Of a stretch of DNA of 64,000 bases, positions 40,259 to 59,667 are shown piece after piece (the first letter of the stretch is position 1; each line of letters begins with the position of its first letter). The position numbers and the translations under genes were made by a program. Location: the NCBI GenBank assembly GCA_004017535.1, contig SAJS01000001.1, forward strand, positions 868,001-932,000, read 5' to 3'. Source of the DNA: Mesorhizobium sp. (GTDB lineage Bacteria > Pseudomonadota > Alphaproteobacteria > Rhizobiales > Rhizobiaceae). The notes beneath the pieces were generated by a model, which was not told the origin of the DNA, made no database searches, and saw only the letters and a list, made by a program, of their open reading frames with translations.

Positions 40259-40283
40259 AACTGCCGCCCGCGCGTTATGTTCC
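40259..40283 (-). promoter_or_regulatory. EcfG-type promoter
   Basis: On the minus strand GGAAC (40283-40279), 16 bases, AGTT (40262-40259). It serves the gene at 39997-40215 and overlaps the end of the methyltransferase gene. Confidence 0.65.
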
Positions 40284-41210
40284 GCCGCCAACGCGGATAA
40301 GGAAGACCGTGCCGTCCCAACTGCCGAAAGGCATTTCGCCATCGACCAAGACGTCCATGCCAAACGCGTGGGCAAGACGGTTGATATCGCGGGAATCAAT
40401 GTCCGGCGACGCCCGATAGGAATAGTTGAGGATTGCCGCCATTCCTCCTGGCCGCAGCACGCGCGCGATATCGCCGAAATGCCGCTCGGCAACACCGGCA
40501 AGCACCAGGTACGGAAAACTGTCGAGAGCCAGCACGCCGTCGAAGCTTTGATCGGCAAAGTCACCGAGATCAAGGCCCGAGGTCAGGCGGAATTCCACAT
40601 TGTCGACGCCGGCGCATCGCCGGCGCGCGATGGCGATCATCCGGGGCGAGATATCGATGCCGACGATACGTCCCGCCATGGCGCCAAGCGCATGTTCGAG
40701 GCGCCCGATGCCGCAGCCGATGTCCAAGATGCGTTTGTGGGTGCCGAGCATGCCTTGCCGTTCCAGCCACAAGGCAATCTCGCCGGTTGTGGCCGAGAGC
40801 CTGTCCTCGTCGCCCAGCGATGACAGCTGCACGCTGGCGGCCGGAGATATGGCGGCCGCCCGATCGAATCCGCCCGCCAGCCGCTCGACGGTCATAGCCG
40901 CCGTTTCGCCTTTGGCAGGGTCATGCGACACGCAGGCAGCGACCCTGCGGACGGCGTCAAAGGCGTCGGCCTTGTCACGCAGCATCGTGGCGATGCCTTC
41001 CAGCCAGCTTCGCCGGGGCACATGGCTCGTGCGCATGTCCAGGGCGACATCCGCCAGTTGCGCCGCGCTGGTCGTCTTGTCGACACAGACGGCCAGTCCG
41101 GCCAGCGCGTTGTCGACGGAAAGGCCGTCCGCCATGTAATCCTCCAGCAGGCGCATGGCGATCGCGCCGGTTTGCCTCGCGAGGGTCACGGCGGCGCGCT
41201 CCGCGTCCAC
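40275..41210 (-). CDS. Class I SAM methyltransferase
   Basis: The 311-residue protein has a class I methyltransferase domain with RILDIGCGIGR at 160-170 and a later IARVLRPGGMAAIL. The N-terminal 120 residues are helical and of no family I recognise. It starts with GTG 41210 inside the 3' end of the GNAT gene, a 25-base overlap, or at a downstream Met. It is the last gene of glycan operon A. Confidence 0.8.
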   Translation of the reverse strand: MDAERAAVTLARQTGAIAMRLLEDYMADGLSVDNALAGLAVCVDKTTSAAQLADVALDMRTSHVPRRSWLEGIATMLRDKADAFDAVRRVAACVSHDPAKGETAAMTVERLAGGFDRAAAISPAASVQLSSLGDEDRLSATTGEIALWLERQGMLGTHKRILDIGCGIGRLEHALGAMAGRIVGIDISPRMIAIARRRCAGVDNVEFRLTSGLDLGDFADQSFDGVLALDSFPYLVLAGVAERHFGDIARVLRPGGMAAILNYSYRASPDIDSRDINRLAHAFGMDVLVDGEMPFGSWDGTVFLIRVGGGT

Positions 41211-42178
41211 ACCTTTCGCGCTGTCCAGCGGTCGTTCGCGCCCCAGCCATATTTGTATCCTTCACGGCCGCGCAGAAAATCGAACTCGCGCGCGCCTTCG
41301 TTGGCGGCTTCCGTGATGGCATGGCCGATCAGGATCGCGCCGGGGCTTTCCTCCGCATAGGCTGGATCGAAACCGCCGAGATAGGCATAGGCTCGGTCGC
41401 GGTGATGAAATCCGTAATAGGCGCCGACGACGGCATCGCCGATCTCGATCGTCAGGCATCGCGCCAGGCCGTTATCGGCAAGCCGCGGCAGTGCCCTGCG
41501 ATGAAATTCCACCGCCAGGTCGGACAGCACGCCCCCGCCATGACCGGCCCAGCGCGCGCCATGCAGCCGGATCAGCCTGTCGAGAAATATCTGCGGATCG
41601 GACTCGCCGCGGCTGACGACAACGGCTCCCCTTCGCCGGGCAGCTCGCTCGGCGCGGCGCAACTGACGTCGTCGTCTCGCCGGAACCGAGTAGGCCAAGG
41701 TTCGATCGCCATCGAGCGGCAGCACGGGACAGGCGGCGTGCGCCGTCGACCGGCGCTCTTGCGCATTCGGCAGCTCAAGGCTCAGCGACATGGCATCAGC
41801 CGGGAGGTCGGGCAGGATCCATTGCGACCATTCGAGCGAGAGCACCGCGCCGGCAATGGCGGCGCCAGCCTCCGCCTCCAGTTCCGGCACGCACAAGATG
41901 TCGAGGTAGTCGCTCAGAGAAATGCCGATGGGCAGCAGGCGCTGACCGCGATCATGCCTTTCGACATAAAGCGGCGCCAGGCCGGCGAGGTCGTCTCCAC
42001 TCCACAATGCAATGGCCGCAAGGTCGCCGGGCGCGAATGTCCGCCACCACGGAATGAGCCAGGCAGGAGACTGGAACGGCGTGGCCGAGATGCTCCGCCG
42101 CCAAAGCCGCCACCAATGCGGCTCCAGGTCCACGAATGCTTTCGCGTCATGAATGATCTCGGTGCGCAGACCGCCCAT
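41186..42178 (-). CDS. CelD/BcsL-like GNAT acetyltransferase
   Basis: The 330-residue protein has the build of CelD/BcsL-type double-GNAT proteins found in exopolysaccharide loci. HYDRGQRLLP-like charged turns lead to a GVSLSDYLDI-type core, and AYAYLGGFDPAYAEESPGA with DFLRGREGYKYGWG near the end match the family's acceptor domain. Such proteins acylate glycans or their lipid carriers. Its start joins the GT4 stop by TGATG. Confidence 0.85.
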   Translation of the reverse strand: MGGLRTEIIHDAKAFVDLEPHWWRLWRRSISATPFQSPAWLIPWWRTFAPGDLAAIALWSGDDLAGLAPLYVERHDRGQRLLPIGISLSDYLDILCVPELEAEAGAAIAGAVLSLEWSQWILPDLPADAMSLSLELPNAQERRSTAHAACPVLPLDGDRTLAYSVPARRRRQLRRAERAARRRGAVVVSRGESDPQIFLDRLIRLHGARWAGHGGGVLSDLAVEFHRRALPRLADNGLARCLTIEIGDAVVGAYYGFHHRDRAYAYLGGFDPAYAEESPGAILIGHAITEAANEGAREFDFLRGREGYKYGWGANDRWTARKVWTRSAPP

Positions 42179-43239
42179 CAGCCGGTTCCCAGCAAGGCGC
42201 GACGGGTGCCAAGCTTCGCCAGCGCTTCGTAAGCATCCATGTAGGATGCGATCATGCGTTCAAGCGAGAAGCGGCGGCGCGCCTCGGCACGGCATGCCTC
42301 GTGGTCCAGGGCTCCGGAAGCGATAATGGCCTTCGTCATCTCCTCGACGTCATTGACCAGGAAACCGGTCCTGCCGTGCTGGACGACATCGGGAAGGGCG
42401 CCGTTCGGGAAAGCGACGACCGGCGTGCCGCAGGCGAGCGCCTCCATCGCGACAAGCGAGCTTGTTTCGGGGGCAAGGCTGGGAATGACAAGGCAGCGTG
42501 CGGCATTGAGCAGCCGCCGCTTGGCACAGAAGCCGAGTGGCCCGAGGAAACGCCGCTGCCGATCGAGCCGGGGGCGGACCTCGTCGGCGAAATAGCGCAG
42601 ATGGGTCTCGTATGGATAGACCTGGCCGGCAATCGCCAGAGGCATGCCAGCGCGCTTGGCTGCCTCTACCGCCAGATGGATGCCCTTTTCGGGACAGATG
42701 CGGCTGAGTACCAGCGCGAAATTGCGGCGCGACCGAAGGTCGTTCAGCGCATCGACATCGACGCCGTTCGGGATAGGTCGTGCAAGTCTCGATCCTGCCG
42801 GCGCCGTCCCGTGCTGCGCCTGCGAGACCGCATGCAGCCACAAGTCCTCGCGTGACGGCGCCAGCACCTCGGGCGGGTACCAGCCGAGTGGCAGGTGCAA
42901 CGTCACCAGGGTTGGGCCGTCGGAAGGCAGATAGGCGTCGAAGTCAATCCCGTGGAGGTGAACGACGTCGATCCGCCAGCGCGCCCGGGCGGCTGCTATC
43001 GCGTCACGATGCGCTTTATAGGCACGTTTCTTCGCCGCCTCATCGAGCACGCCCGCTTCGGCTGGTGTTTCCACCAGGACGCCGGCCGTGCTTGACCCTT
43101 GGCAGGCGACGACAACCGAAAGGTGGCCTTTCTCGACCAGCGCCCGGTCCAGCGCTGACATCACCTGCTCGGCGCCGCCGACCGCATCCGGCCCGACGGG
43201 CGCGAGAGGGTAGGCGACGTTGAGGACAGTCAGTGTCAT
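42178..43239 (-). CDS. Glycosyltransferase family 4
   Basis: This 353-residue retaining glycosyltransferase of the GT-B fold has an N-terminal DAVGGAEQV donor-side loop, the SRICPEKGIHLAVEAAKRAG core and the E-x7-E region PSLAPETSSLVAMEALACG. The donor sugar cannot be told from sequence alone. It lies between the glycosidase and GNAT genes in operon A. Confidence 0.9.
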   Translation of the reverse strand: MTLTVLNVAYPLAPVGPDAVGGAEQVMSALDRALVEKGHLSVVVACQGSSTAGVLVETPAEAGVLDEAAKKRAYKAHRDAIAAARARWRIDVVHLHGIDFDAYLPSDGPTLVTLHLPLGWYPPEVLAPSREDLWLHAVSQAQHGTAPAGSRLARPIPNGVDVDALNDLRSRRNFALVLSRICPEKGIHLAVEAAKRAGMPLAIAGQVYPYETHLRYFADEVRPRLDRQRRFLGPLGFCAKRRLLNAARCLVIPSLAPETSSLVAMEALACGTPVVAFPNGALPDVVQHGRTGFLVNDVEEMTKAIIASGALDHEACRAEARRRFSLERMIASYMDAYEALAKLGTRRALLGTG

Positions 43240-43254
43240 CGTTGATCTGGGGCT

Positions 43255-44190
43255 TCACCATGCCGCCGACACGCGCTGCGTCGTCGCCAGGTTGTCGCCG
43301 ATCGCCGGAGCGTAGCGTCGGATCATGGCCGCGCAGAACTCGGCGAATTCCTCGGGGATCTGGGGTGGGCTTGTGTGGTGAGGCTGCAGGCCGCGATGCT
43401 CCGGCGTGAAGCAGAAGGTGACGGTGACGTTGAAGTCGGCCAGCGCTTCCATCTGGCGGTCGAACCAGTCCAGCGCATTCGGCCGAAAACTGTCGGCCCA
43501 GGAGAGGCCGGTGCGCAGGTGGGTGACACCCAGACGCTCCATCCAGGCAACAGCATCGTCCAGCCGGTGATCCTCATAATGGAACCACTGCACCAGGCCC
43601 ATTTGCGGGGTGTGGCGCACGAATTCCTCGAGCGCCGGCTTGGGCGTGCCGTCCTCGCGCAGCAGGCCCATGTAGAAGTGCCTGTAATAGGACGAGCCTT
43701 CCGCCTCCCGATGGCGCGTCGTCGCTTCCCAGGAGCGCGGCAGATCATAGAGGCTGTACCACTGAACGCGCGGCGCAAGTCCGAGCAAAAGCTCCGCTGT
43801 CCGGCGCAAGCCCCAGACTTGCACCTCCTCGGCGCCAAAGGTCGACACACCGACCTCGCTGACCCACACCGGAATGTCCGCGACCGTCGCGATCTCTCCG
43901 AGCTTGTGGGGCCACTCGTGGATTTGCCAGAGATTCCAGTCGAGCGGAAAGCCATGCACGGCGACCGCGTCGACATGGTCGAGCACGCCGAACTCCTTCA
44001 TGCGCGACATGAACCCGGCATCGATCGGCGAAATGCCGCCCAGCACCTTTGTGATGGCCGGATTTTCCCGACCGATCGCATCGGCCGCCAGGATCGCCAT
44101 TGTTGCAAAACGGCTCCAGTCGGGGTCGAGCTCGGGGTCCCAGTGCGATTTGTTGTTGGGCTCGTTCCAAATCATGGCGGCTTCAATCAT
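43255..44190 (-). CDS. Clan GH-A-like glycosidase, apparently permuted
   Basis: The 311-residue protein has the clan GH-A catalytic pair. The acid/base is Glu10 in IWNEPNN and the nucleophile is Glu112 in PVWVSEVGVS. The NEP strand (beta-4) is at the extreme N-terminus. Segments that look like beta-1 to beta-3 (LVQWFHYEDH, THLRTGLSWADS, VTVTFCFTPEH) come last, ending in MIRRYAP, which would normally precede NEP. ATG 44190 has GGGAGAG upstream. Related proteins are often annotated as beta-xylosidase. Confidence 0.8.
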   Translation of the reverse strand: MIEAAMIWNEPNNKSHWDPELDPDWSRFATMAILAADAIGRENPAITKVLGGISPIDAGFMSRMKEFGVLDHVDAVAVHGFPLDWNLWQIHEWPHKLGEIATVADIPVWVSEVGVSTFGAEEVQVWGLRRTAELLLGLAPRVQWYSLYDLPRSWEATTRHREAEGSSYYRHFYMGLLREDGTPKPALEEFVRHTPQMGLVQWFHYEDHRLDDAVAWMERLGVTHLRTGLSWADSFRPNALDWFDRQMEALADFNVTVTFCFTPEHRGLQPHHTSPPQIPEEFAEFCAAMIRRYAPAIGDNLATTQRVSAAW

Positions 44191-44944
44191 GGGTCTCTCC
44201 CTTCGAAGGATAGACGGCGGCGCTGCCGGTCGGTTCGCCGGACGCGCGGCAGAAATAGACCTCGTCTTCCGGGTGGAGCAGGATCTCGAAACCGGCGCTG
44301 CGCAGCATCGCTTCGGTGCAGGCGCGGTTCGGAATCCACCAGTTGGTCGGGTCGTCCGCATAGCGATGCTCGATGAAGTGCAGCTTCGGAAACTCGGGCC
44401 GATCGAAGAGGTCGCGTGTCCAGAAATGGTAGTTCTGTTCGAGCGGCAGGACTTCGTTGCTGCCCCGCTGCATCGACTGGAAGATCATCAGGTCGCTCGC
44501 GACATGCGCGCGGATCAGGTCGAGCGCCAGCAACGGGTGGCGCAGATGGTAAAGCACGCCCATGAACAGCACGATGTCGAAGCGCTCGCCGAGCGAGGCG
44601 ACATCGTAGACCGATAGTTCCCTGAACTCGATCTCGCAGTCGGCGATCTCGGCGGCGAAACGCGCCTGGGCGAGATAGGCTTGGTCGAAGTCTATCCCAA
44701 GCACGCGATCGGCGCCGCGCTTCTTCATTTCGATCGAGTAGAAGCCTGCGTTGCAGCCGATATCGAGCACCGACTTGCCCGAAAGATCAGCCGGAATGGC
44801 ATCCGCGAATTTGCGCCATTTGATCAGCGGGTAGTTGCCGAGGAAATGATCGGGAGCGGTCTCCACGCCCGCGAGCTCCATATTGTGGAACCACGGCCCC
44901 AATGCGTCGATGCGGCGGCGTATTTCCGTGCTGGAATGCAGCAT
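44183..44944 (-). CDS. TIGR04290-type SAM methyltransferase
   Basis: The 253-residue protein resembles the CmoB-like methyltransferase family TIGR04290, described as linked to glycosyltransferase clusters. The SAM site VLDIGCNAGFYSIE spans 59-72; the downstream LFMGVLYHLRHPLLALD is also typical. The acceptor is unknown. Its stop overlaps the glycosidase start by eight bases. Confidence 0.85.
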   Translation of the reverse strand: MLHSSTEIRRRIDALGPWFHNMELAGVETAPDHFLGNYPLIKWRKFADAIPADLSGKSVLDIGCNAGFYSIEMKKRGADRVLGIDFDQAYLAQARFAAEIADCEIEFRELSVYDVASLGERFDIVLFMGVLYHLRHPLLALDLIRAHVASDLMIFQSMQRGSNEVLPLEQNYHFWTRDLFDRPEFPKLHFIEHRYADDPTNWWIPNRACTEAMLRSAGFEILLHPEDEVYFCRASGEPTGSAAVYPSKGETHD

Positions 44945-44946
44945 GG

Positions 44947-45750
44947 CTAAGCTCCTTCGCCTGGAACGGTTGGCACTGGCGAGCGGTCCCGCGATGCGAA
45001 TGTCGGCAGGGTCCCATCGTCGACGGTATCATTGCTTTCGAGCAGCCTGAGCGCCGTGCGATAGCCGTTGAAGGTACCGACGTCGACATAGGCGGTCCCC
45101 GCCTTGACGCCGTAAGCTTCGCCTCCGCCGGCGAGATAGGCGTTGACCAGCGTGCCGAAATACTCGTCGACGCCGTCGCGCTGGCGCCACAGTGCCGCCA
45201 GTTGATGGAAGACACTGCCCGGCATCTTGAAGGCGCCCCAGACCCAGTTTGTCGCGGCGTCAGCTTGCTTGACCTGGATCTGCTCGACCCGCCCGTTCCC
45301 ATCGAGGACGACGGCGTCGAACAGTTCCGGACGATCGACCGGAAACATCAGGAAGGACAGCCGGTCGTCGGCCAGACGGCAGAAGCCGTCTTCAGGGAAC
45401 CAGATCGTGTCAGGCAGGCCGATCAGGACCGTTTCGTCCGGCGTCACGAGCGGTGCGGCGCGGAAGATCGCGTCGCAAAGGCCAACCGGAGACGGCTGCG
45501 CCACGAAGATCGCCGCGGCGTCGCCATAGCCGGCGGCGTAATATTCGAGGATGTCCGACTTGCCGGAACCGATGATGAAGCAGATGCGGTCGACGCCGTT
45601 GCGCACCATGCGCCGCACCAGATATTCGCTCACCGCACAAGGGCGTTCGGTCTGGCCGTCCAGGCGGCTGCCGACCGGCAGCAGCTCCTTGGAGAAACCC
45701 AGCGGCTGAATGCGGCTGCCGCGACCGGCGGCAGGCACGATGCCAAACAT
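44947..45750 (-). CDS. Sugar-phosphate nucleotidyltransferase
   Basis: The 267-residue NTP-transferase has IVPAAGRGSRIQPLGFSKEL at its start, the nucleotide-binding motif with Lys in the KELLP segment. LIGLPDTIWFP contains the metal-binding Asp, and WVWGAFKMPG is a substrate motif. The G1P-thymidylyl/uridylyltransferase fold is clear; base and sugar are not. In this operon it could activate a hexose phosphate or inositol phosphate. It overlaps the CgeB-like gene by one base. Confidence 0.88.
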   Translation of the reverse strand: MFGIVPAAGRGSRIQPLGFSKELLPVGSRLDGQTERPCAVSEYLVRRMVRNGVDRICFIIGSGKSDILEYYAAGYGDAAAIFVAQPSPVGLCDAIFRAAPLVTPDETVLIGLPDTIWFPEDGFCRLADDRLSFLMFPVDRPELFDAVVLDGNGRVEQIQVKQADAATNWVWGAFKMPGSVFHQLAALWRQRDGVDEYFGTLVNAYLAGGGEAYGVKAGTAYVDVGTFNGYRTALRLLESNDTVDDGTLPTFASRDRSPVPTVPGEGA

Positions 45751-46850
45751 CAGACAGCTTCCTCCATTGTGCCCCTCGACATGGATGCAAAAGCGTCGTT
45801 CAGGATGCGGTCGAGTTCGGCGGCGCGATGCGCGGACGTATGCTCGTCGAGGACGCGCTCCCGGGCGCGGCGGCCGAGAGTCGCAATCTCGTTCTCCGAC
45901 AAGTCAAGCGCTGCAACGACGTCGCCGGTGCTGTGCGCCAGAAGGATCTCGCTGCCGGGCGCGAAGAAGCTGTCGAGGCCGGCCCAGTCGTCGGAGATGA
46001 TCGCGGCGCCGCACGCAGCCGCCTCGAACAGACGGCCTGACGGGCACCAGCCCTGTCGCGCCATCGCCTCACGGGTGACATTCAGCGTCAGGCGCGAGGA
46101 GGAAAAGAAGGCCGGGTGGTCGGCGGGCGGCAGGTGCCTGACGAAATAGATGTTGCTGCTCCAGGGGAAGTCCTGCGGGTACTGCGCCCCGCCTATGACG
46201 AAACGGCGGGTCGGCAGTCGGGCCGCAGGAGCGACGAGCAGCCTTTCCACGGCCGCCTGCCGGTCCTCGGCATAGGTCCCGAGATAGGACAGGTCGCCCT
46301 CGAACTCGGACCTTGGCTGTGCCGGCCGGTGCCGGTTGGGGTCGACATGGCCGTAAAGCGGCAAGATATGACGTGCGCCAAGAATGCTCTTCAGTGTGTC
46401 GATCGCCGGCCCTCCGGTATAACTCAGGACCAGATCGAAATCGCGCAATCCCTTCGGCTCGAAATAGGCCGGGTAATCACCTCGCTCGATGCTCGACAGC
46501 GTCACCGGTGTATCGAGATCGTAAAACACCTTCAGGCCGCGGCAGCTGTCATTCGCGATCCGCGAGGCCTCGACGGCATCGGGACAATAGGAGGTGACTA
46601 TGATGACGTCGGCTTCCCGTATCGCAGCCTCGGCTTCTTGGCGGATGTTCTCCCAGTCCGCGTAGAGAACGATGTTCCCGCCATTGAGCCGGTCGATGTC
46701 CCTGGCGCCGGCGTAGTAGGGCGTATCGCGCTCAAAGAAGCTGATCGACCAGCCAAGCGGCGCCAGGGCGCCAATCAGTCCGCGCCAGAGCGTGGCGTGT
46801 CCGTTGCCCCACGAGGATGTGACGGTGAGGCCGAAAATGACCATGCGCAT
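45750..46850 (-). CDS. CgeB-like glycosyltransferase 1
   Basis: The 366-residue protein belongs to the CgeB-like family of GT-B glycosyltransferases. TVTSSWGNGHATLWRGL is the N-terminal signature and GRLFEAAACGAAIISDDWAGL the C-terminal donor-site motif. It is very like the gene at 51787-52896 in operon B (SLSSSWGNGHATTFRGL), so the two operons share a paralogue. Acceptor unknown. Confidence 0.88.
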   Translation of the reverse strand: MRMVIFGLTVTSSWGNGHATLWRGLIGALAPLGWSISFFERDTPYYAGARDIDRLNGGNIVLYADWENIRQEAEAAIREADVIIVTSYCPDAVEASRIANDSCRGLKVFYDLDTPVTLSSIERGDYPAYFEPKGLRDFDLVLSYTGGPAIDTLKSILGARHILPLYGHVDPNRHRPAQPRSEFEGDLSYLGTYAEDRQAAVERLLVAPAARLPTRRFVIGGAQYPQDFPWSSNIYFVRHLPPADHPAFFSSSRLTLNVTREAMARQGWCPSGRLFEAAACGAAIISDDWAGLDSFFAPGSEILLAHSTGDVVAALDLSENEIATLGRRARERVLDEHTSAHRAAELDRILNDAFASMSRGTMEEAV

Positions 46851-46865
46851 CGGTTGCCGCTCCCG

Positions 46866-47458
46866 TCAGGCGATTTCATTCAAACTGACCAGCTTGGACC
46901 CCCAGTCGCCGTAGACGACCGTTGTGATGGAGGCCGGCGCGATGTCGAAGCGGAAGCAATCGCCGAGCGGCAGGCCGAGGATCGCGCAGACAGCCGCCTT
47001 GATGACGTCTGCATGGCTGACAAGCGCAATGCACTGACCCTGTCCATTCTCGCGCAGCGCGTCCATCAGGCCGATGATCCTGTGCTGCACGTCCAGCATG
47101 GTCTCGCCGCTCGGCGTGCGGGCGCTCTGGCGCTGGTCGTTCCAAAGCCGCCAGCTTGCATCGCCGTTGAGTTCTTCGAAGGTCTTGCCGGACCATTCGC
47201 CGAAGTCGATCTCGTCGAGTTCCTTGCAGATCGCGATCTTCTCAATCTCGCAAGCGATGGCAATCGGCTTCGCTGTTTCCAGCGTGCGTTCGCGCGGACT
47301 GCTCAAGATCGCGGCGAGCGGCTCCCGCGCCATCCGCCGTGCGAGATGCAGCGCTTGCGCTTGGCCGGCTTCGCCCAGGCGAACGCCTTCGAGCCGCCCG
47401 GCCAGGTACGAGCCGACATGATCATGCGCCGCGTGGCGGATAAGAAAGAAGGTGGTGG

Positions 47459-47462
<4 letters not shown>
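46866..47462 (-). CDS. Histidine phosphatase family protein
   Basis: The 198-residue phosphatase has the [12 protein letters not shown] motif with the catalytic His in RHA (9-11). A second catalytic His is in SHADV. Members dephosphorylate small phosphate esters. Directly behind inositol-phosphate synthase (ATGA overlap), its substrate may be an inositol or sugar phosphate, but this is an inference. Confidence 0.88.
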
Positions 47463-48562
<1,100 letters not shown>

Positions 48563-48605
48563 GAAACCACGGCCTCTTTGGTTGGAGGTAAGTTCCTCGG
48601 CGCCG

Positions 48606-48630
48606 AACCGGGAGCGGCCTCGAATGTTCC
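48606..48630 (-). promoter_or_regulatory. EcfG-type promoter of glycan operon A
   Basis: On the minus strand GGAAC (48630-48626), 16 bases, GGTT (48609-48606), 44 bp before the ino1 GTG. It matches the promoters before the small stress genes. Confidence 0.7.
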
Positions 48631-48716
48631 TTCGCGCCGCGAAAAATTGCCGAGCCTGATTGCGGATCAAAGAGGCTCCGCTTCGCGTTGGCGACCAGAC
48701 AGCAGGCAGGAGCCGT

Positions 48717-50461: not shown

Positions 50462-50647
50462 TCAGTCGAGCCTGCGCAGCATGTCGGCTTCCTGTTCCAA
50501 GATGCTTGCCACTTCCTCCCGTCGCAGATGCGTCATCATCAGGCTGACACAACACTCGAGATAGGTGATGGAAGCTCTTCGCAGGAACGCGGCGGTTTCC
50601 GCCGCGGCCATCTGCTCGATGTCGTTGACTGATCGCTTCGGCTGCAC
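50462..50647 (-). CDS. Small hypothetical protein with EcfG promoter
   Basis: The 61-residue product starts MQPKRSVNDIEQMAAAETAA and is helical, with a Cys pair in ECCVSL. It uses a GTG start with GGAGGAAG upstream. An EcfG-type promoter lies 31-55 bp upstream. It is convergent with the 48717 gene and in line with UDP-glucuronate decarboxylase-like gene. Confidence 0.6.
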   Translation of the reverse strand: MQPKRSVNDIEQMAAAETAAFLRRASITYLECCVSLMMTHLRREEVASILEQEADMLRRLD

Positions 50648-50677: not shown

Positions 50678-50702
50678 AACCGAAATATCGGGCGGTTGTT
50701 CC
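50678..50702 (-). promoter_or_regulatory. EcfG-type promoter
   Basis: On the minus strand GGAAC (50702-50698), 16 bases, GGTT (50681-50678). It serves the gene 50462-50647. Confidence 0.65.
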
Positions 50703-51790: not shown

Positions 51791-52896
51791 GCTGCACTTT
51801 CTACGCCCAGATCGACCGCCGGACGCGTTCCGACAGACGGCGTCAGCGCCGAAACGAATTCACGTGCCCTTGCCATGGCGGTATGTCTTGAAAGCACCGC
51901 CTCCCGTGCCAGTCTGGCCATGGTGAGCCTTGCCCGCTCGGATTTGGCGCTGAGGATATCCTCGACATCTGCGGCATTGGCCGCCGTCTCGATCGCCGGT
52001 GCCGGGAAAAAATCGTCGAGCCCAGGCCAGCGGTCGCTTATGATCGGCGTGCCGCAGGCAGCGGCCTCGAAAAGCCGCACGCTGGGCGACCATCCAGCCG
52101 CGATCATCGACGCCCGCGTAAGGTTCAACGTATAGCGCTGGCGGCTGTAGAAGGCGGCATGTTCAGAAGGCGGCAGGTGCTCGATCCGCTCGACATTGTC
52201 CGGCCAGGCGATGTCGGAGGGATATTGCGAGCCGGCGACGACGAAGCGGCGGTCGGGCAGGCGTCGCGCAGGCTCCAGAAGCAGCGCTTCCAATGAGGGC
52301 TGCCGGTCGGCGCTATAGGTGCCGAGATAGCCGAGATCCCATTCGATGGCGTCTCTGGTGCGACGATGCCGCGTTGGATCCACGGAGCAGTAGAGCGCCT
52401 CCGCCCGGCGCGCGCCGAACTCGGACTTCAGCCGCTCCAGCGTCGGTCCGCCGGTGAAGGAGAAATAGACGTCGAAATAGGGAATCTGCCTGCGGGCAAG
52501 ATAGTCGCAATCGTCATCGGCAACCCGCGCCAGCGTCACCGGTGTGTCGATGTCGTAAAAGCAGAACTGCCCCGTGCAGAGCGACGCAAGGTCGTCGATG
52601 ATCGCCCTGCCTTCCGGCACGAAGGAGCCTATCACCACCGCGTCGGCGCGCTGCAGCTCCTGCCGGTGGTTTCGGCGCAGCTCCGAGACGGTCTCGTAGT
52701 AACCCAAGTCGCAGAAATCGGGATCGCGCAGGTCCCGATGATGCGCGTACCAGGAGACATCGCGTTCGAGGAAGGTGACGCGATGGCCGAGACCGTTGAG
52801 CGCACGCAGCAATCCGCGGAAAGTCGTCGCATGGCCGTTGCCCCAGGACGAAGACAGGGAGAGCCCAAGGAAAACGATGTCGAGCGGTTTCGTCAT
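51787..52896 (-). CDS. CgeB-like glycosyltransferase 2
   Basis: The 369-residue protein begins MTKPLDIVFLGLSLSSSWG and has the SVRLFEAAACGTPIISDRWP donor-site motif. It is the operon-B counterpart of the gene at 45750-46850. ATG 52896 overlaps the upstream TGA (ATGA), and its own stop overlaps the decarboxylase-like start. Confidence 0.88.
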   Translation of the reverse strand: MTKPLDIVFLGLSLSSSWGNGHATTFRGLLRALNGLGHRVTFLERDVSWYAHHRDLRDPDFCDLGYYETVSELRRNHRQELQRADAVVIGSFVPEGRAIIDDLASLCTGQFCFYDIDTPVTLARVADDDCDYLARRQIPYFDVYFSFTGGPTLERLKSEFGARRAEALYCSVDPTRHRRTRDAIEWDLGYLGTYSADRQPSLEALLLEPARRLPDRRFVVAGSQYPSDIAWPDNVERIEHLPPSEHAAFYSRQRYTLNLTRASMIAAGWSPSVRLFEAAACGTPIISDRWPGLDDFFPAPAIETAANAADVEDILSAKSERARLTMARLAREAVLSRHTAMARAREFVSALTPSVGTRPAVDLGVESAA

Positions 52897-53987
52897 TCCG
52901 CAGCCTCCATTGCGCGGCGCTCGAAATGCGCCTTGAAGATGTCGTCCACCAGCCGAGCCCTCAGCGTGTAGGTATGCTCGGCCCGAACGCGCCGCAGCGC
53001 TGCCGCGCCGATCGCCTTCGCCCGCTGTGGCGTCAGCGTGCGCATGACCTCGGCGACATCGGCGCCGTCGCGGGCGACCAGGATCTCTTCGCCGGGGGTC
53101 AGGAAAAATTCGATGCCGAGCCAGGCGTCGGTCAGAAGGCACGCGCCGGCCCCCGCCGCCTCGAAGACACGGGTCGCGGGCGAAAACCCGTTGGCCGCCA
53201 TGCTGTCGCGGCTGATGTTGAGCACGGCCTTCGGCGTGACGTTGAAGGCGTTGTGATCGCGGGTGCCGACATGCCTCAGCCATGAGACATTCGGGGGCAG
53301 GGGCTTGTCGTCCCAGCCGGAGCCGCCAAGCAAGAAGCGCTGGCCGCCGAGCCTGCGGGCCGGGTCGAGGAAGAAGGCGTCGACGCGCGCCTCACGGTCG
53401 GGCAGCCGATTGCCGAGGAAGGCGAGGTCGCAGGCAAAGCGCGGATTTGCGGCGACCGGATGATGCGTCTCGGGATCGAGCGCATTGTAGATCGGCACGC
53501 ATTCCGCTGCGCCGAGCGCACGATAATCCCAGACGACCGGGTCGCCGCCGCCATAAGTCAGCACGATGCCGATCCTCTTCAACGCCTCATGCAACGGGTG
53601 TTCGGCGTCATTGCGCAACTCGCTCAGGGTCGCCGGCGCGTCGACATCCCAGAACACGGTCAGCGCATCCGGGCGGGCATTGTCGAGAACCGCCTGCAGC
53701 AGCGCATCGTCCTCGAATCCGACGCCGCTTGCCTTGACGACGACGTCCGCCTGCGCGGCGCGCGAGGCAACCTGCATCAGCGCGTGCGGCTTCGGCTCGT
53801 AGACCACGACGCTGCACCAGTCCGGCGCCTCGATGTCGCGATGCTTCTGCCGATCGTAGACGTCGGGTTCATAGAAGACGATGTCATAGCCGCGCTGCGA
53901 GAGCGCCTTGAGCAGGCCGCGGTAATAGGTGGCCGCGCCGTTCCAATAGGATGACAGAAGGCTCGATCCGTAAAAGGCAATTTTCAT
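52893..53987 (-). CDS. CgeB-like glycosyltransferase 3
   Basis: The 364-residue GT-B protein starts KIAFYGSSLLSSYWNGA and has TRVFEAAGAGACLLTDAWLG as its donor-site motif, a CgeB family variant. ATGA overlaps link it to the genes on both sides. Donor and acceptor unknown. Confidence 0.87.
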   Translation of the reverse strand: MKIAFYGSSLLSSYWNGAATYYRGLLKALSQRGYDIVFYEPDVYDRQKHRDIEAPDWCSVVVYEPKPHALMQVASRAAQADVVVKASGVGFEDDALLQAVLDNARPDALTVFWDVDAPATLSELRNDAEHPLHEALKRIGIVLTYGGGDPVVWDYRALGAAECVPIYNALDPETHHPVAANPRFACDLAFLGNRLPDREARVDAFFLDPARRLGGQRFLLGGSGWDDKPLPPNVSWLRHVGTRDHNAFNVTPKAVLNISRDSMAANGFSPATRVFEAAGAGACLLTDAWLGIEFFLTPGEEILVARDGADVAEVMRTLTPQRAKAIGAAALRRVRAEHTYTLRARLVDDIFKAHFERRAMEAAE

Positions 53988-55114: not shown

Positions 55115-55116
55115 GG

Positions 55117-56217
55117 TCAACGCCCCGCTGCGGTCAGCGCCGCCCGATTGTAGATGTCGCGCATCATCCTCACCTGCTTGCCCAGCGAGAATTTGCGTGC
55201 CTGCCGCGCGGCGCGCCGGCCGAGCTTGCGCCGCAAGCTTTCGTCACGGGACAGGCTCTCGATGCAGCCGGCCAGCGCATGTGGATCGCGCTGATTGAAG
55301 AACATGGCCGCGCCGTCCCAGATCTCGCGGTAGGTCGCGATATCGGCGAGCACCAGCGGCGTGGCCGAGAGCGCGGCTTCCAAGGCGGCCAGTCCGAAAG
55401 GCTCGTAGATGGAAGTTGAGACGAAGATGCCGGCTCGCCTCATGCGGCGGCGAACCTCGCGGTGGTCGATTGAACCGAGCGAGACGCAGTTGTCGAAACG
55501 GGCGCGCTGTCCGTCGGGACCGGCGAGCGGACCGGCGGCCTGAACGGGCCAGGCGCAGAGCGCTGCGGCGGCGTCGAGCGATGCCGCATCCTTGCCCTCG
55601 TCCCACCAGCGCGCGGCGGCGAAGACGAAAGGCTCGCGGCGTACCGGCCTCGGACCGGGCAGGGCGCCATTATGGACGACGCCCAAGCCTGCGATCGCGC
55701 CGTAGCAGGCTTGGAGCATCTCGGCATGGCTTCGGCTCGGAGCGACTATGGTGTCGGCGCGATCGAATCCGGCCCTGTTGCGATCTCGCTGCCAGGACCA
55801 GGCGTCCGCCGGCGCCTGCCCACGCACCGCGTGCAGCCAGGTGGCCACGCATGAATGCGAGACCGCGACGATGGGACATGTCAGATCAAGTCCGGCGGCT
55901 TGCGACGGCGCATTGAGATGGACGAGATCGATCGCATAGGTCTTGGCAAGGCTTCGCAATTCGCCCGGCAAGCGGTCGAGATCTTTTTCATCGCGCGTCA
56001 TCCAGTCCGGCGGGCTTTTCAGCCAAACCAGCGTGGCGAAAGACTGCGCCTCACGCGCCTGCTCCGGAGAAGGCTCCGGCCCCAGCCCGGCAAGCACGAT
56101 GCTGTCGCCGCCGGCCGCCAGCTCGCGAGCCAGGTCGAGGCAATAGCGCCACACCCCGCCGACGGCGTCGGTCGTCATCAGGATGCGCCGCGGACGATGG
56201 ATCAGTGATTGCAGCAT
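55117..56217 (-). CDS. Glycosyltransferase family 4
   Basis: The 366-residue GT-B protein has the TTDAVGGVWRYCLDLAREL opening, a HVLNAPSQAAG-type acceptor loop and the E-x7-E region STSIYEPFGLAALEAALS. It overlaps the radical SAM gene by 16 bases. Operon B therefore encodes one GT4 and three CgeB-like enzymes in a row. Confidence 0.9.
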   Translation of the reverse strand: MLQSLIHRPRRILMTTDAVGGVWRYCLDLARELAAGGDSIVLAGLGPEPSPEQAREAQSFATLVWLKSPPDWMTRDEKDLDRLPGELRSLAKTYAIDLVHLNAPSQAAGLDLTCPIVAVSHSCVATWLHAVRGQAPADAWSWQRDRNRAGFDRADTIVAPSRSHAEMLQACYGAIAGLGVVHNGALPGPRPVRREPFVFAAARWWDEGKDAASLDAAAALCAWPVQAAGPLAGPDGQRARFDNCVSLGSIDHREVRRRMRRAGIFVSTSIYEPFGLAALEAALSATPLVLADIATYREIWDGAAMFFNQRDPHALAGCIESLSRDESLRRKLGRRAARQARKFSLGKQVRMMRDIYNRAALTAAGR

Positions 56218-57494
56218 GAGGACTCCAACTCAGCCAGCGCATGCGGGCGCTGGTCCTGGATGTCGCTGAAGGAGCGGAAGGAGGCGAGGTAGTGCTCATG
56301 CGCGCGCTCCCAGGCGAGGTCGTCGGGTTCGCCCCAGAGTTCGCGATAGCTGGGCGAGCTCGGATAGGGGTAGAGCGGCACGGGCTCGTTCGCCCAGACG
56401 CCGTAATCGATGAGGTGCTTGCGCCAATAGTCCACCAGCGCCGGGTCGTCCTCGACCACGCCGATCAGATTGGCCTGGACGAAAGGCACGTTGCGGCGGG
56501 CGTCGATGAGCAGCGCTGCGAGGTCCTCAGTGTCGAGGCGGCAGCGCTTGGCAAGCATCGCGCGGCCCTCGACGGTCAGGCTTTCAAGGCCTGCTTCGAT
56601 CGAGACGCAGCCTGCCGCGCCGAGCAGCTCGAGCAGTTCCGGCTTCCACAGATCGATGCGCGTCTGGACGCCGAATTGGACGTCGCGATCGACCAGCGCC
56701 TCCAGCAGCGCTTTCTGCGGCAGGAAGATCTCGTCGATGAAATAGATGTAGCCGACGCCTTGCGCGATCAGCCCGTCGATCTCGGCGACGATGGCATCGT
56801 GCTTCCTGCGCCTATAGGCATCGCGAAAATCGATCTTGGCGCAGAAGCTGCAATTGTAAGGGCAGCCGCGCGACGCCTCCACCTCGGCGCCGGCGCCCTT
56901 CTGGACGGTATCGAACCTATGGTGGTGGTGGCCATGCGCCGCGATCCAGTCGGACGGCCAGCTGAGCGCCGGATGATCGACGAACGGACTGGCATGAACG
57001 CCGCCATAGCAGGCGAGACCCTCGCCCTGGAGGCGGGCCGTATGCGCGACCTTGCTCCAGTCGCCTTGCCGCGCGAGCTCAGCCACGACCTCTTCGCATT
57101 CGCCGCGCACGACGACATCGACGCCGAGCTTGCGCAAGGTGGGAGCTGGCGTCGCCGAGCCGTGCGGTCCGACCGCCACGGTGCGTCCGCCGCGCCTGGC
57201 GAGATGATTGAGGAATTCCCCAGGAACACGCAGTTCCGGCGGCGCGCAGCGCCAGAACAGGTAAGTCGGCGCGGTGGTTACGACTGTCATGTCTGGCGCG
57301 AAAGCCGCCACACGCTCGGCAAGAGCCGCGTTGTCGAGGCTTTGCAGCAAGCCGTCCAGCATCAGGACGTCGTGCCCGTCGGCTTCCAGCATTGCCTTCG
57401 AATAGCCGAGCTCCAGCGGCAGATGCGGCTGCCGGCAGCCGAAATAGATGCTGTGCTCATACGTCCAGAACGGATTGACCAGGGCGACTTTCAT
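56202..57494 (-). CDS. B12-binding-type radical SAM protein
   Basis: The 430-residue protein has an N-terminal cobalamin-binding-like Rossmann domain (about 1-140) and a radical SAM domain with CPYNCSFC (Cys211, Cys215, Cys218). A His-rich HGHHHHR lies just before. The AGLESLT segment and the PYPSSPSYREL end match the TIGR04295-type family found with glycosyltransferases. Likely a methylase or C-C bond former acting on a sugar or lipid. ATG 57494 overlaps the epimerase stop by ATGA. Confidence 0.88.
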   Translation of the reverse strand: MKVALVNPFWTYEHSIYFGCRQPHLPLELGYSKAMLEADGHDVLMLDGLLQSLDNAALAERVAAFAPDMTVVTTAPTYLFWRCAPPELRVPGEFLNHLARRGGRTVAVGPHGSATPAPTLRKLGVDVVVRGECEEVVAELARQGDWSKVAHTARLQGEGLACYGGVHASPFVDHPALSWPSDWIAAHGHHHHRFDTVQKGAGAEVEASRGCPYNCSFCAKIDFRDAYRRRKHDAIVAEIDGLIAQGVGYIYFIDEIFLPQKALLEALVDRDVQFGVQTRIDLWKPELLELLGAAGCVSIEAGLESLTVEGRAMLAKRCRLDTEDLAALLIDARRNVPFVQANLIGVVEDDPALVDYWRKHLIDYGVWANEPVPLYPYPSSPSYRELWGEPDDLAWERAHEHYLASFRSFSDIQDQRPHALAELESSCCNH

Positions 57495-58564
57495 GCGACG
57501 TACCTCGTGGCTTCGGGGCGCGATTGGAGCCGATGCCGCAGCAGCCAGCTGGCGAGATCGCAGATGCCTTCGCGCCACGGGACATGCGCCTGCCAGCCGA
57601 TCGCGGCTTGCAGCTTGCGCGTGTCGGCGACGAAGTAGGGTTGATCGCCGATGCGCTCGTGGTCGTGGCGGATCGTGATGTCGCTGCCGGTCATGTCGGC
57701 GATCTCCGCCAGCAGCACGCGCAGGCTGACCGCGTTGCGCGGGCCGCCGCCCAGATTGAACGCCTGGCCCTTGACGTCCTCGATCCTGGCCAACAGGCCG
57801 CGATAGGCGGCAACCGCATCGGAAACATGCAGGATGTCGCGCACCTGCCGGCCGTCGCCGTAAATGGTGATCGGCTGGCTGGACAAGGCACTCAGAAGAA
57901 AATGCGCGACCCAGCCCTGGTCCTCGGTGCCGAATTGGCGCGGCCCGTAGATGCAGCTCATGCGCAGCACCGCCGTCGGCAGCCCATAGGACTTGGAATA
58001 GTCGAGCACATACTGGTCCGCCGCGCCCTTCGAGCAGCCATAGGGCGTGCAGAAATCAAGGCCGACCTTCTCAGCGACGCCGCTCGTCCGCACCTGCTCG
58101 TCGAGTGGTTCATAGTGATCGTCCGCTTGGCGCACCGCGATCTGCGGCAGGCTGCCATAGACCTTGTTGGTGCTGGCGAACACCACGGGAGTTCCGCTGC
58201 CGCGAGCCGCTTCCAGGACGTTGAACGTGCCCTTGAGGTTGATGTCGAAGTCTTCAGCAGGATCGGTCAGGCTGGTCGTCACGGCTGTTTGAGCGGCCAG
58301 ATGGAAAATCGCTTTGGCCGGCGCCAGTGCGGTGGCCAACGCGCTCAGATCGCGAATGTCAACGATCTCGGCGATCAGCCGCTCGCCGTGCTTTTGCGCC
58401 AGCCAATCGAGATTCTGCTCGACGCCTGGACGGCTGAGATTGTCGACGACCAGGACTATTTCCCCGTCGGACAGCAGGCTGTCGGCCAGGTTGGAGCCGA
58501 TGAAGCCGCTGCCGCCGATAACGGCCACGGGCGCCTGCCGTGCGTGGCGGTGCGTTTTGGTCAT
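57491..58564 (-). CDS. NAD-dependent nucleotide-sugar epimerase (CDP-paratose/GDP-mannose type)
   Basis: The 357-residue extended SDR has GGSGFIG at 17-23, STNKVYGSLPQ at 131-141 and the catalytic Tyr175 and Lys179 in YGCSKGAAD. The STNKVYG motif recalls CDP-paratose 2-epimerase. LSSQPITIYGDGRQVRDIL is typical of the subclass. ATG 58564 overlaps the upstream stop. Confidence 0.86.
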   Translation of the reverse strand: MTKTHRHARQAPVAVIGGSGFIGSNLADSLLSDGEIVLVVDNLSRPGVEQNLDWLAQKHGERLIAEIVDIRDLSALATALAPAKAIFHLAAQTAVTTSLTDPAEDFDINLKGTFNVLEAARGSGTPVVFASTNKVYGSLPQIAVRQADDHYEPLDEQVRTSGVAEKVGLDFCTPYGCSKGAADQYVLDYSKSYGLPTAVLRMSCIYGPRQFGTEDQGWVAHFLLSALSSQPITIYGDGRQVRDILHVSDAVAAYRGLLARIEDVKGQAFNLGGGPRNAVSLRVLLAEIADMTGSDITIRHDHERIGDQPYFVADTRKLQAAIGWQAHVPWREGICDLASWLLRHRLQSRPEATRYVA

Positions 58565-59667
58565 GAGACCAATCCTCGCTCTTCCAGCTCGCGCCGCATG
58601 TCGGCACCCCGGTCGATCACGACGCTGTTGCGAACCCAGGCGGCGAATTCGCCGAGCGAATTTTCCAGACGATGCTTGGGCTCGAAGCCGAGCAGCTCGC
58701 GCGCCTTGGCAATGTCGGCGAAGCAATTGCGGATATCGCCGGAGCGCGCCTTGCCGAGGATTTCGGGCGGGCGCTTGGGAATACCCATCGCCCTGGCAAG
58801 CAGGCGGGCCACTTCGCTGATCGAATAGGCGTGGCCGCTGCCGATGTTGATGGCATGTCCGGCGGCCTGGCGCTGTTCCAGCGCCAGCCGGAACGCGGTG
58901 GCGACGTCGCGCACATGCACGAAGTCGCGCTTCTGCTCGCCGTCCTCGAAGATCGTCGGCCGCTTGCCGTTGGCCAGGCGCGAGGCGAAGTTGGCGAGAA
59001 CGCCGGTATAGGGATTGGAAAGCGCCTGTCCGGCGCCGAAGACGTTGAAGAGGCGCAGCGCCACCGCGTCGATTCCATAGGCCTGGCCGAAGATCAGCAC
59101 CGCGCGCTCCTGCGCGTATTTCGTCAGCGCGTAGATCGAGGCGAGATCCGGCCGCTTCTCCTCGTCGGTCGGAACCGGCGACAGGGCCTCGCCCGATGCC
59201 GATCTGAGATCCCACAAGCCGTCCTTGATATCAGTGGGCTTGCGGCGCGCATTGTCGATCCGCTCGCCGTCCGCAGTTCGGTAAAGACCTTCGCCATAGA
59301 TGCTCATGGAGGATGCCACGACGATCCGTTCGACCGGCTTCTTGATCAGCGCCTCGAGCAGCACCGCCGTGCCGAGATCGTTGGTGCCGACATAGCGGGC
59401 GATCTCGTACATCGACTGGCCGACGCCGACCTCGGCCGCCAGGTGGATGACCGCGTCGACATCAGCAACCGCCTCGGCGACCGCATCGCGATCGCGCACG
59501 TCGCCTTTGATCAGCTCGGCTCCGGTGGGAAGGTTGATGGCTTCGGCGCCGTGCACCTGGTCGACAAGCGCATCGAGCAGGCGCACGCGATAACCATGGT
59601 CGGCGAGCTCCTGGGCGACGTGGCGGCCGATGAAGCCGCAACCTCCCGTAACCAATACTCGTTTCAC
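58561..59667 (-). CDS. NAD-dependent nucleotide-sugar epimerase (rhamnose 4-epimerase type)
   Basis: The 368-residue extended SDR has GGCGFIG at 8-14, SSMSIYGEG near 119-127 and Tyr179/Lys183 in IYALTKYAQE. An insert of about 40 residues between motifs and FEDGEQKRDFVHV are like dTDP-L-rhamnose 4-epimerase. GTG 59667 with GGGAG upstream is the start. First gene of operon B; an EcfG-type promoter lies 36 bp upstream. Confidence 0.87.
   Translation of the reverse strand: MKRVLVTGGCGFIGRHVAQELADHGYRVRLLDALVDQVHGAEAINLPTGAELIKGDVRDRDAVAEAVADVDAVIHLAAEVGVGQSMYEIARYVGTNDLGTAVLLEALIKKPVERIVVASSMSIYGEGLYRTADGERIDNARRKPTDIKDGLWDLRSASGEALSPVPTDEEKRPDLASIYALTKYAQERAVLIFGQAYGIDAVALRLFNVFGAGQALSNPYTGVLANFASRLANGKRPTIFEDGEQKRDFVHVRDVATAFRLALEQRQAAGHAINIGSGHAYSISEVARLLARAMGIPKRPPEILGKARSGDIRNCFADIAKARELLGFEPKHRLENSLGEFAAWVRNSVVIDRGADMRRELEERGLVS

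What the first reader, a model, noticed from the sequence alone, without database searches (positions are those of the whole stretch)
40275..59667. Two-operon glycan locus with no recognised product
Operon A and B together encode inositol-phosphate synthase, a phosphatase, a nucleotidyltransferase, two methyltransferases, a GH-A-like glycosidase, six glycosyltransferases (four CgeB-like, two GT4), a CelD-like GNAT, a B12-type radical SAM protein and three nucleotide-sugar SDRs. No flippase, polymerase, Wzz or polysaccharide export protein is seen, so the product may be a small glycan or glycolipid rather than a polymer. TIGR04290- and TIGR04295-type families are known to travel with glycosyltransferases, but I know of no characterised product.
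Basis: partly seen in the sequence, partly recalled or inferred. Interest (0 to 1): 0.75.

Follow-up and report, generated by a model that had tools for sequence, protein, structure and literature searches.

The report
Stress glycan locus with permuted glycosidase
A conserved bacterial gene cluster, probably switched on by stress, seems to build a small unknown sugar compound, and one of its enzymes has had its chain order naturally rearranged, apparently swapping places with the ordinary version of that enzyme several times in evolution.

Summary
The locus is real. Gene order is largely conserved across Alphaproteobacteria. No description of the product was found in the papers searched.

Three things go beyond the finding.

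(1) The "GH-A-like glycosidase" (43255-44190) is a natural circular permutation of a PslG-like barrel. Its halves match PslG, and a canonical-order sibling domain, in swapped order. Rotating the profile at residue 195 turns two hits into one of 277 columns, E 2.4e-47. Related clusters carry the canonical form fused to SDR2. The forms alternate (at least 7 changes on the tree). Two genomes with the permuted form keep a fused domain that lost catalytic residues. INO1 accompanies the permuted form: 11 of 13 genomes against 0 of 12.

(2) The B12 radical SAM enzyme alternates with a Zn-dehydrogenase plus Gfo/Idh pair.

(3) EcfG-type stress promoters head both operons here and in many, not all, relatives.

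Best reading: a cytosolic, stress-induced pathway to a small methylated glycoside, inositol-based in this variant. The product is unproven.

The parts
58561..59667 (-). SDR1, GalE-like NDP-sugar epimerase/dehydratase; first gene of operon B
   Evidence: PF01370 1.1e-55 on the longer ORF; best PDB UDP-glucose 4-epimerase 4zrm 6e-42
59703..59727 (-). EcfG-type promoter box GGAAC-N17-GTT, 35 nt upstream of SDR1
   Evidence: a box within 250 nt upstream of SDR1 in 62 of 85 loci, 41 of the 62 being Mesorhizobium
57491..58564 (-). SDR2, CDP-tyvelose 2-epimerase-like; in type II clusters this protein carries the canonical glycosidase at its N-terminus
   Evidence: 1orr 1.1e-77; fusion in L089, L091, L095, L097
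56202..57494 (-). TIGR04295 B12-binding radical SAM protein
   Evidence: 681 bits, cut-off 400; best PDB 6fd2 (AprD4) 2.8e-8
55117..56217 (-). GT4-type glycosyltransferase (GT4b)
   Evidence: PF13439/PF00534
53984..55120 (-). CgeB-like glycosyltransferase (CgeBb)
   Evidence: PF13524 1.4e-35
52893..53987 (-). CgeB-like glycosyltransferase (CgeBc)
   Evidence: PF13524 1.5e-36
51787..52896 (-). CgeB-like glycosyltransferase (CgeBd)
   Evidence: PF13524 1.4e-36 on the longer ORF
50729..51790 (-). SDR3, UDP-glucuronate decarboxylase (UDP-xylose synthase) homologue
   Evidence: 2b69 6.9e-113
48606..48630 (-). EcfG-type promoter box GGAAC-N17-GTT, 43 nt upstream of INO1
   Evidence: a box within 250 nt upstream of INO1 in 40 of 58 loci (34 of the 40 Mesorhizobium), opposite strand 0 of 58
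47459..48562 (-). INO1, inositol-3-phosphate synthase homologue; first gene of operon A
   Evidence: 1gr0 3e-147; TIGR03450 544 bits, cut-off 638
46866..47462 (-). histidine-phosphatase-superfamily protein (HisP)
   Evidence: PF00300 2.3e-44
45750..46850 (-). CgeB-like glycosyltransferase (CgeBa)
   Evidence: PF13524 6.1e-41
44947..45750 (-). sugar-phosphate nucleotidyltransferase (NTP)
   Evidence: PF00483 4.2e-8; RmlA/GalU weak
44183..44944 (-). TIGR04290 methyltransferase
   Evidence: 384 bits, cut-off 300
43255..44190 (-). circularly permuted PslG-like glycosidase, 311 aa; strand order 4-5-6-7-8-1-2-3; catalytic candidates E10 and E112
42178..43239 (-). GT4-type glycosyltransferase (GT4a)
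   Evidence: PF13692 5.5e-20
41186..42178 (-). CelD/BcsL-type GNAT (PF13480)
   Evidence: 3.4e-34
40275..41210 (-). second methyltransferase (MT1)
   Evidence: PF13649 1.5e-19
48660..50444 (+). orphan protein U594 (true start not determined), divergent from INO1; neighbour of permuted-type clusters
   Evidence: no Pfam or NCBIfam match at E<=0.001; homologues in 35 loci, none of canonical type; next to and divergent from INO1 in 26 of the 32 loci that show both

Best explanation
The locus encodes a cytosolic pathway, under the alphaproteobacterial general stress response (EcfG sigma factor), that builds a small modified oligosaccharide or glycoside, probably kept in the cell as a stress protectant.

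Core steps: sugar nucleotides are made by SDR1, SDR2 (C2-epimerase type) and SDR3 (UDP-xylose); one GT4 and three CgeB-like transferases assemble about four sugars; TIGR04290 methylates; and either the B12 radical SAM enzyme or a Zn-dehydrogenase plus Gfo/Idh pair makes one further change. I propose an epimerisation, through a radical or through a keto intermediate.

A PslG-like glycosidase trims or transfers a sugar. In this variant it is circularly permuted and comes with INO1 plus a phosphatase, so that here inositol (or a glycosyl-inositol phosphate that is then dephosphorylated, as in the mycothiol pathway) is the likely acceptor.

Shown: gene content, conservation, permutation, alternation of forms, promoter boxes, no recognised membrane protein. 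Inferred: the product, the order of steps, the protectant role, the reaction of the radical SAM enzyme.
For: Gene families. SDR3 is UXS-like, SDR2 tyvelose 2-epimerase-like, INO1 closest to 1gr0.

Permutation: PslG halves swapped; hhalign two hits become one of 277 columns on rotation at residue 195, while three control rotations stay split; AlphaFold models of both forms have eight strands, rotated by three; both catalytic Glu invariant in 18 permuted and 14 canonical sequences; the canonical model's top Foldseek hit is PslG, 2.6e-10.

Alternation: of 35 genomes behind radical-SAM loci, 27 have the full-length permuted form, 6 the canonical one only, 2 neither; at least 7 changes on the 54-row tree; fused domain without the acid/base Glu in L057 and without either Glu in L047, both of which have a permuted copy.

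Inositol link: INO1 in 11 of 13 permuted against 0 of 12 canonical genomes, Fisher 2e-5; cluster INO1s in two separate lineages.

Radical SAM or pair: 88 loci with TIGR04295 only, 7 with the pair only, 1 with the Zn-dehydrogenase only, 0 with both, of 96; no TIGR04295 anywhere in three complete genomes that carry the pair or its Zn-dehydrogenase (G325, G667, G650). The pair is nearest to IolM and IolG, both far below cut-off.

Stress control: boxes before SDR1 in 62 of 85 and INO1 in 40 of 58 loci; inner genes 0-2 loci each, except CgeBb 10 of 90.

Soluble: hydropathy; no export gene annotated in ten relatives.
Against: No metabolite, enzyme assay or expression datum for this locus was seen. 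Export or polymerisation genes could lie elsewhere in the genome, which was not searched for them. S. meliloti and Paracoccus clusters hold a pyruvyltransferase-like and an FrhB-like gene next to the locus, which would fit a surface glycan.

Canonical-type genomes lack INO1, so inositol made by this enzyme is not part of every product, and two permuted-form genomes lacked it too. The strict EcfG box is missing before INO1 in 8 of 11 further cluster loci and before SDR1 in 23 of 85; 41 of the 62 SDR1 boxes and 34 of the 40 INO1 boxes are from Mesorhizobium, so not independent; and the bare motif is common in this genome (315 against 265 in the control). AprD4, the nearest solved radical SAM relative, is named a diol-dehydratase in NCBIfam, not an epimerase. 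Some dehydrogenase-pair clusters lack INO1 (L095, L097), so the pair's substrate need not be inositol.
Confidence: 0.55

Rival explanations
1. The locus makes the repeat unit or a decoration of a surface polysaccharide or glycolipid; flippase, polymerase or ABC exporter are encoded elsewhere, and the glycosidase edits the chain as PslG does in Psl synthesis.
For: PslG is the closest solved relative of the permuted form by sequence and the top Foldseek match of the canonical form; pyruvyltransferase-like and FrhB-like genes sit beside the S. meliloti and Paracoccus clusters; PF13480 GNATs are common in exopolysaccharide loci (recalled).
Against: No recognised membrane or exported protein among the 17 and no initiating lipid-linked transferase; the canonical glycosidase is fused to an NAD-dependent sugar-nucleotide epimerase, which places it in the cytosol; no export gene annotated in the stretches of ten relatives, though that table is incomplete.
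Confidence: 0.25
2. The locus glycosylates a protein or a small secondary metabolite (for example a pigment or antibiotic-like glycoside).
For: B12 radical SAM relatives include natural-product enzymes such as AprD4; several glycosyltransferases and methyltransferases.
Against: No aglycone-building enzyme (polyketide, peptide, terpene) among the 17 genes or in the conserved core; the inositol synthase suggests a sugar-type acceptor in this variant.
Confidence: 0.12
3. The apparent permutation is an artefact of a wrong start codon or a split gene.
For: The longest ORF extends upstream of the proposed start, over the TIGR04290 gene.
Against: Strands 1-3 lie downstream in the same uninterrupted frame; all 25 complete sequences (the window's own and 24 others) have M or V at the same first residue; 18 aligned sequences keep the order; the one frame is predicted as one complete barrel.
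Confidence: 0.02

Closest known systems
PslG (glycosidase of Psl polysaccharide synthesis; PDB 5bx9, 4zn2)
   Different: Here the chain order is permuted (strands 4-8, then 1-3), no signal peptide is apparent, and the enzyme sits in an apparently cytosolic cluster without polymer genes.
Naturally permuted glycoside hydrolases: GH70 against GH13; E. coli MalS (GH13 subfamily 19)
   Same: Natural circular permutation in a sugar-active enzyme (titles and abstract starts in the listing).
   Different: Those are alpha-glucan enzymes of another clan (recalled: GH-H); this is a GH-A-type, PslG-like barrel.
NCBIfam TIGR04290 and TIGR04295
   Same: Both over cut-off here; the model name 'B12_rSAM_oligo' may hint that curators saw an oligosaccharide context (my reading of the name).
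   Different: Both are hypothetical equivalogs; the cluster types, promoter boxes and interchanges described here are not in those names.
Mycothiol pathway start (INO1, MshA, phosphatase)
   Same: INO1 of the mycobacterial type, GT4 transferases with weak similarity to MshA (5.5e-12 and 5e-11), a phosphatase.
   Different: No MshB, MshC or MshD among the 17; different sugar enzymes and four CgeB-like transferases.
Alphaproteobacterial general stress response (PhyR-NepR-EcfG)
   Same: GGAAC-N17-GTT boxes at a near-constant distance before both operons; S. melonis EcfG-dependent genes include glycosyltransferases (PMC6599016, passages only).
   Different: It is not shown that the S. melonis genes are this cluster, and no EcfG dependence was measured for this locus.

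Membership tests
Clan GH-A / PslG-like glycosidase | (beta/alpha)8 barrel with acid/base Glu at strand 4 and nucleophile Glu at strand 7 | tested here: met
   On predicted models, after undoing the rotation: E10 just after the first chain strand (=beta4), E112 on the fourth (=beta7); both invariant in 18. Canonical sibling: E116 just after strand 4, E223 on strand 7. Models have mean pLDDT 79.8 and 74.4 with some loops under 50.
Clan GH-A / PslG-like glycosidase | Significant sequence similarity to a solved member | tested here: met
   PslG, profile E 1e-5, halves swapped; single sequence 0.0015. The canonical profile alone found none at E<=0.01.
CAZy family GH39 (Pfam PF01229, accession recalled) | Match to the Pfam model of the family | tested here: not met
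   No such hit at E<=0.001 for the window protein or at E<=1 for two permuted and three canonical relatives; only Glyco_hydro_cc PF11790 at 20.4 bits, cut-off 21. So it is called PslG-like, not a GH39 member.
Clan GH-A / PslG-like glycosidase | Retaining glycosidase activity | not testable with these tools
   Needs enzyme assay.
Natural circular permutation | Two segments homologous to a canonical relative, order exchanged, one alignment after rotation | tested here: met
   hhalign E 7e-33 and 5e-14 unrotated; 2.4e-47 over 277 columns rotated; three control rotations stay in two pieces.
TIGR04290 methyltransferase | Score over curated cut-off | tested here: met
   384 against 300 bits.
TIGR04295 B12 radical SAM | Score over curated cut-off and CxxxCxxC motif | tested here: met
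   681 against 400 bits; motif CPYNCSFC visible in the translation.
Inositol-3-phosphate synthase TIGR03450 | Score over curated cut-off | tested here: not met
   544 against 638 bits; still closest to 1gr0 at 3e-147. Likely the same reaction, not filed as the mycothiol equivalog.
EcfG (general stress) regulon | GGAAC-N16/17-GTT box at promoter distance before the operon, kept in relatives | tested here: met
   Met in the window and in 62 of 85 (SDR1) and 40 of 58 (INO1) loci, mostly Mesorhizobium; absent from many distant clusters.
EcfG (general stress) regulon | Transcription lost in an ecfG mutant | not testable with these tools
   Experiment needed.
Wzx/Wzy or ABC-dependent polysaccharide locus | Flippase, polymerase, chain-length or export genes in the locus | tested here: not met
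   None in the window locus and none annotated in the stretches of ten relatives (incomplete gene table). Elsewhere in the genome: not tested.

The most novel reading that the evidence does not exclude
A natural circular permutation in a clan GH-A glycosidase arose once, joined an INO1-phosphatase cassette, and has since repeatedly displaced the canonical, SDR-fused enzyme in a conserved stress-response pathway, leaving catalytically dead fused domains behind in some lineages. In the same pathway a B12 radical SAM enzyme and an IolM/IolG-like dehydrogenase pair are interchangeable, which would make TIGR04295 a radical epimerase of a sugar or cyclitol. The product is an undescribed intracellular stress glycoside, inositol-based in the permuted type.
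Probability: 0.3. Interest if true: 0.8.

Novelty: new variant of a known kind. Interest (0 to 1): 0.62.

Why it matters
It gives a clear natural experiment in enzyme evolution: permuted and canonical forms of one glycosidase swap in the same pathway, with decayed intermediates. It also points to a conserved and probably stress-regulated metabolite in nitrogen-fixing and plant-associated bacteria for which I found no description, and gives two orphan families (TIGR04290, TIGR04295) a pathway and a testable reaction.

Tried and rejected
Promoter spacing: fixed spacings of 18 and 19 bases before GTT and a form with CGTT gave nothing clearly above chance (1, 3 and 0 matches); GGAAC-N15..18-GTT gave 17 against 4.4 expected.

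The 53283-start and 59215-start ORFs of CgeBd and SDR2 used are over-long; the likely starts are 52896 and 58564 (translations).

Inositol as part of every product: rejected, since 0 of 12 canonical-type genomes have an INO1 at E<=1e-20.

Literature, ten searches: TIGR04290, TIGR04295, twelve guessed S. meliloti locus tags, permutation in glycoside hydrolases (four searches), RpoE2 with glycosyltransferase, and EcfG/PhyR with inositol synthase. Judged by listings, none describes this cluster or a permuted GH-A enzyme; the library is open-access only. PMC6599016, PMC2912261 and PMC10315480 were seen as passages only; none of those passages shows regulation of this locus.

Bias and duplicates: 80 loci came from a search with the radical SAM protein, so the 88/7/1/0 count in 96 loci is not an unbiased sample. 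The fairer count is 14 of 16 TIGR04290 genomes with TIGR04295, one of the other two with the dehydrogenase pair, the last an 83% complete assembly with neither seen. Absence of the pair from radical-SAM genomes was checked only within the fetched stretches. Loci L001-L007 and L099-L110 were dropped from the counts. In one search Mesorhizobium loci already typed were not printed. In the tree seven Mesorhizobium or Pseudaminobacter rows were first labelled permuted by assumption; one search then confirmed a full-length permuted copy in each of those genomes (and in L073's).
Full report
WHAT IS THERE. The window lies in a 6.9 Mb genome whose nearest relatives are Mesorhizobium (up to 97% identity of the radical SAM protein). 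The finding's coordinates hold 17 minus-strand genes in two runs, 40275-48562 and 50729-59667, many with overlapping ends. One start is corrected (INO1 at 48562). Between the runs lies a plus-strand orphan gene (48660-50444) with no Pfam or NCBIfam match.

CONSERVATION. tblastn of the 17 proteins on 80 loci fetched with the radical SAM protein shows the order SDR1, SDR2, radical SAM, GT4, CgeB, CgeB, CgeB, usually followed by SDR3, kept from Mesorhizobium to Azospirillum, Methylobacterium, Sphingomonas and a Myxococcales assembly, with INO1, phosphatase, TIGR04290 and the glycosidase next to it in many; a few loci lack or move a gene (for example L070, L111, L117). In an even sample of 385 Alphaproteobacteria, TIGR04290 is over cut-off in 16 and TIGR04295 in 14, all 14 inside the 16; none of 14 control genomes is over either cut-off. 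The glycosidase profile hits 12 of 289, all 12 TIGR04290-positive. Within the genus the cluster is patchy: in the sample, 6 of 9 same-genus genomes, the own one included, have TIGR04290. The tail of operon A (GT4a, GNAT, methyltransferase) was seen complete in L119, L137 and L138; many loci end before it.

ONE INTACT FORM PER GENOME. Of 35 genomes behind radical-SAM loci, 27 have a full-length permuted protein, 6 only the canonical one, and 2 neither; those two are the genomes of L045 and L055, short contigs of metagenome assemblies. In one search the fused domain keeps both catalytic Glu in 16 distinct loci, none with a permuted copy in the stretch. In L057 (Myxococcales) the acid/base motif is lost, in L047 (Mangrovicella) both motifs are lost by pairwise alignment, and both genomes have a permuted copy. 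On a 54-row quick tree of SDR1+SDR2+CgeBc the form changes at least 7 times, for example within Rhizobiaceae (S. meliloti permuted, R. etli canonical). In Mangrovicella the permuted enzyme sits in an INO1-phosphatase-glycosidase cassette without TIGR04290 (L135). The tree cannot tell gain from loss, so that the permuted form displaced the canonical one is my reading, backed by the two decayed domains.

LINK TO INOSITOL. INO1 is present in 11 of 13 permuted-form genomes and 0 of 12 canonical-form genomes at E<=1e-20 (Fisher 2e-5); three of the 12 share a genus. In 190 Alphaproteobacteria at large it is in 16, at least three of them with this cluster (G000, G045, G071). The two permuted genomes without INO1 are G147 and the L057 assembly. 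On a quick tree the cluster INO1s fall into two lineages separated by starred branches with background INO1s between them, which suggests that INO1 joined the permuted enzyme at least twice.

RADICAL SAM OR DEHYDROGENASE PAIR. Among 96 loci with SDR2 and CgeBc, 88 have TIGR04295 and no dehydrogenase pair, 7 have Zn-dehydrogenase plus Gfo/Idh and no TIGR04295, 1 has the Zn-dehydrogenase alone, none has both. The sample is biased towards TIGR04295, but the TIGR04290-based sample agrees, L140 adds another pair and L141 a Zn-dehydrogenase at the edge of its stretch, and TIGR04295 is absent from those whole genomes (G325, G667, G650). The switch happened at least 5 times on the tree. The pair is nearest to scyllo-inosose 3-dehydrogenase IolM and inositol 2-dehydrogenase IolG, far below their cut-offs. 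A pair that oxidises and then reduces could invert a carbon; a radical enzyme could do the same in one step. This is inference; the nearest solved relative, AprD4, is named a diol-dehydratase, and pairs also occur in clusters without INO1 (L095, L097).

CONTROL. GGAAC-N15..18-GTT occurs 17 times in the window against 4.4 expected, including 43 nt before INO1 and 35 nt before SDR1. In relatives a box lies within 250 nt before SDR1 in 62 of 85 loci (41 Mesorhizobium, 21 others) and before INO1 in 40 of 58 (34 Mesorhizobium, 6 others). Before inner genes it is found in 0-2 loci each, except CgeBb with 10 of 90. The opposite-strand control is 0 of 58 for INO1; for SDR1 it is 50 of 85, most likely because the divergent neighbour (59858-60130) has its own box at 59793-59817. 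Distant clusters often lack the strict box (3 of 11 further INO1 loci have it), and over the whole genome the bare motif is only slightly over its control (315 against 265). An EcfG-like sigma factor lies at 38775-39356. Neighbourhoods in relatives hold stress genes such as Mn-catalase, Ku and LigD and DUF4142.

MECHANISM. Sugar nucleotides come from SDR1, SDR2 (tyvelose 2-epimerase type) and SDR3 (UDP-xylose). None of the 17 shows a clear membrane or signal segment on a hydropathy scan, and the canonical glycosidase is tied to an NAD enzyme, so the work is probably done in the cytosol. With no lipid-linked starter, flippase, polymerase or exporter recognised, a small soluble glycoside is the simplest product. 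In this variant INO1 and the phosphatase would supply inositol or dephosphorylate a glycosyl-inositol phosphate. The role as a stress protectant rests on the promoters and the neighbourhood only.

VERDICT. Observation confirmed; interpretation right as far as it goes. The novel part is the permuted glycosidase and its repeated exchange with the canonical form, then the exchange of radical SAM and dehydrogenases. Product and reactions remain to be shown.

Noticed in passing
48660-50444 (+): Orphan protein of up to 594 aa without Pfam or NCBIfam match, divergent from INO1, found in 35 loci and in none of the canonical-type clusters.
   Followed up: partly
59858-60130 (+): Small 90-aa protein with its own EcfG-type box at 59793-59817 (+), divergent from operon B; no NCBIfam match, only a 0.18 Pfam hit.
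   Followed up: partly
38775-39356 (+): EcfG-like ECF sigma factor (PF22029 PhyR_sigma2 hit) close to the locus; of the 25 NCBIfam rows shown only the ECF superfamily model is over its cut-off.
   Followed up: no
39997-40215 (-) and 50462-50647 (-): Two short ORFs (72 and 61 aa), each directly behind an EcfG-type box at 40259-40283 and 50678-50702.
   Followed up: no
3149-23256: Heavy-metal P-type ATPase, FixG-like and cbb3 oxidase (COX1, FixO, FixP-like) genes, phosphoketolase and acetate kinase in the same window as the glycan locus.
   Followed up: no
L057 8.0-8.9 kb and L047 8.1-8.9 kb: Glycosidase-like domain fused to SDR2 that has lost the acid/base Glu (L057) or both catalytic Glu (L047).
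   Followed up: yes
L088 33409-35884; L096 19626-22063: Pyruvyltransferase-like and FrhB-like (F420 hydrogenase beta) genes beside the S. meliloti and Paracoccus clusters.
   Followed up: partly
L088 10556-17136: LacI regulator, sugar ABC-importer genes and a DUF2961 protein next to TIGR04290 in S. meliloti; whether they take up or salvage a related sugar was not looked at.
   Followed up: no
L092 11408-12613: A phosphopentomutase inserted in the Bradyrhizobium cluster between the permuted glycosidase and SDR1.
   Followed up: partly
G000:C1 and C9: GGAAC-N17-GTT boxes are crowded in stretches of the genome, e.g. C1:56-160 kb, perhaps other stress islands (first places listed only).
   Followed up: no
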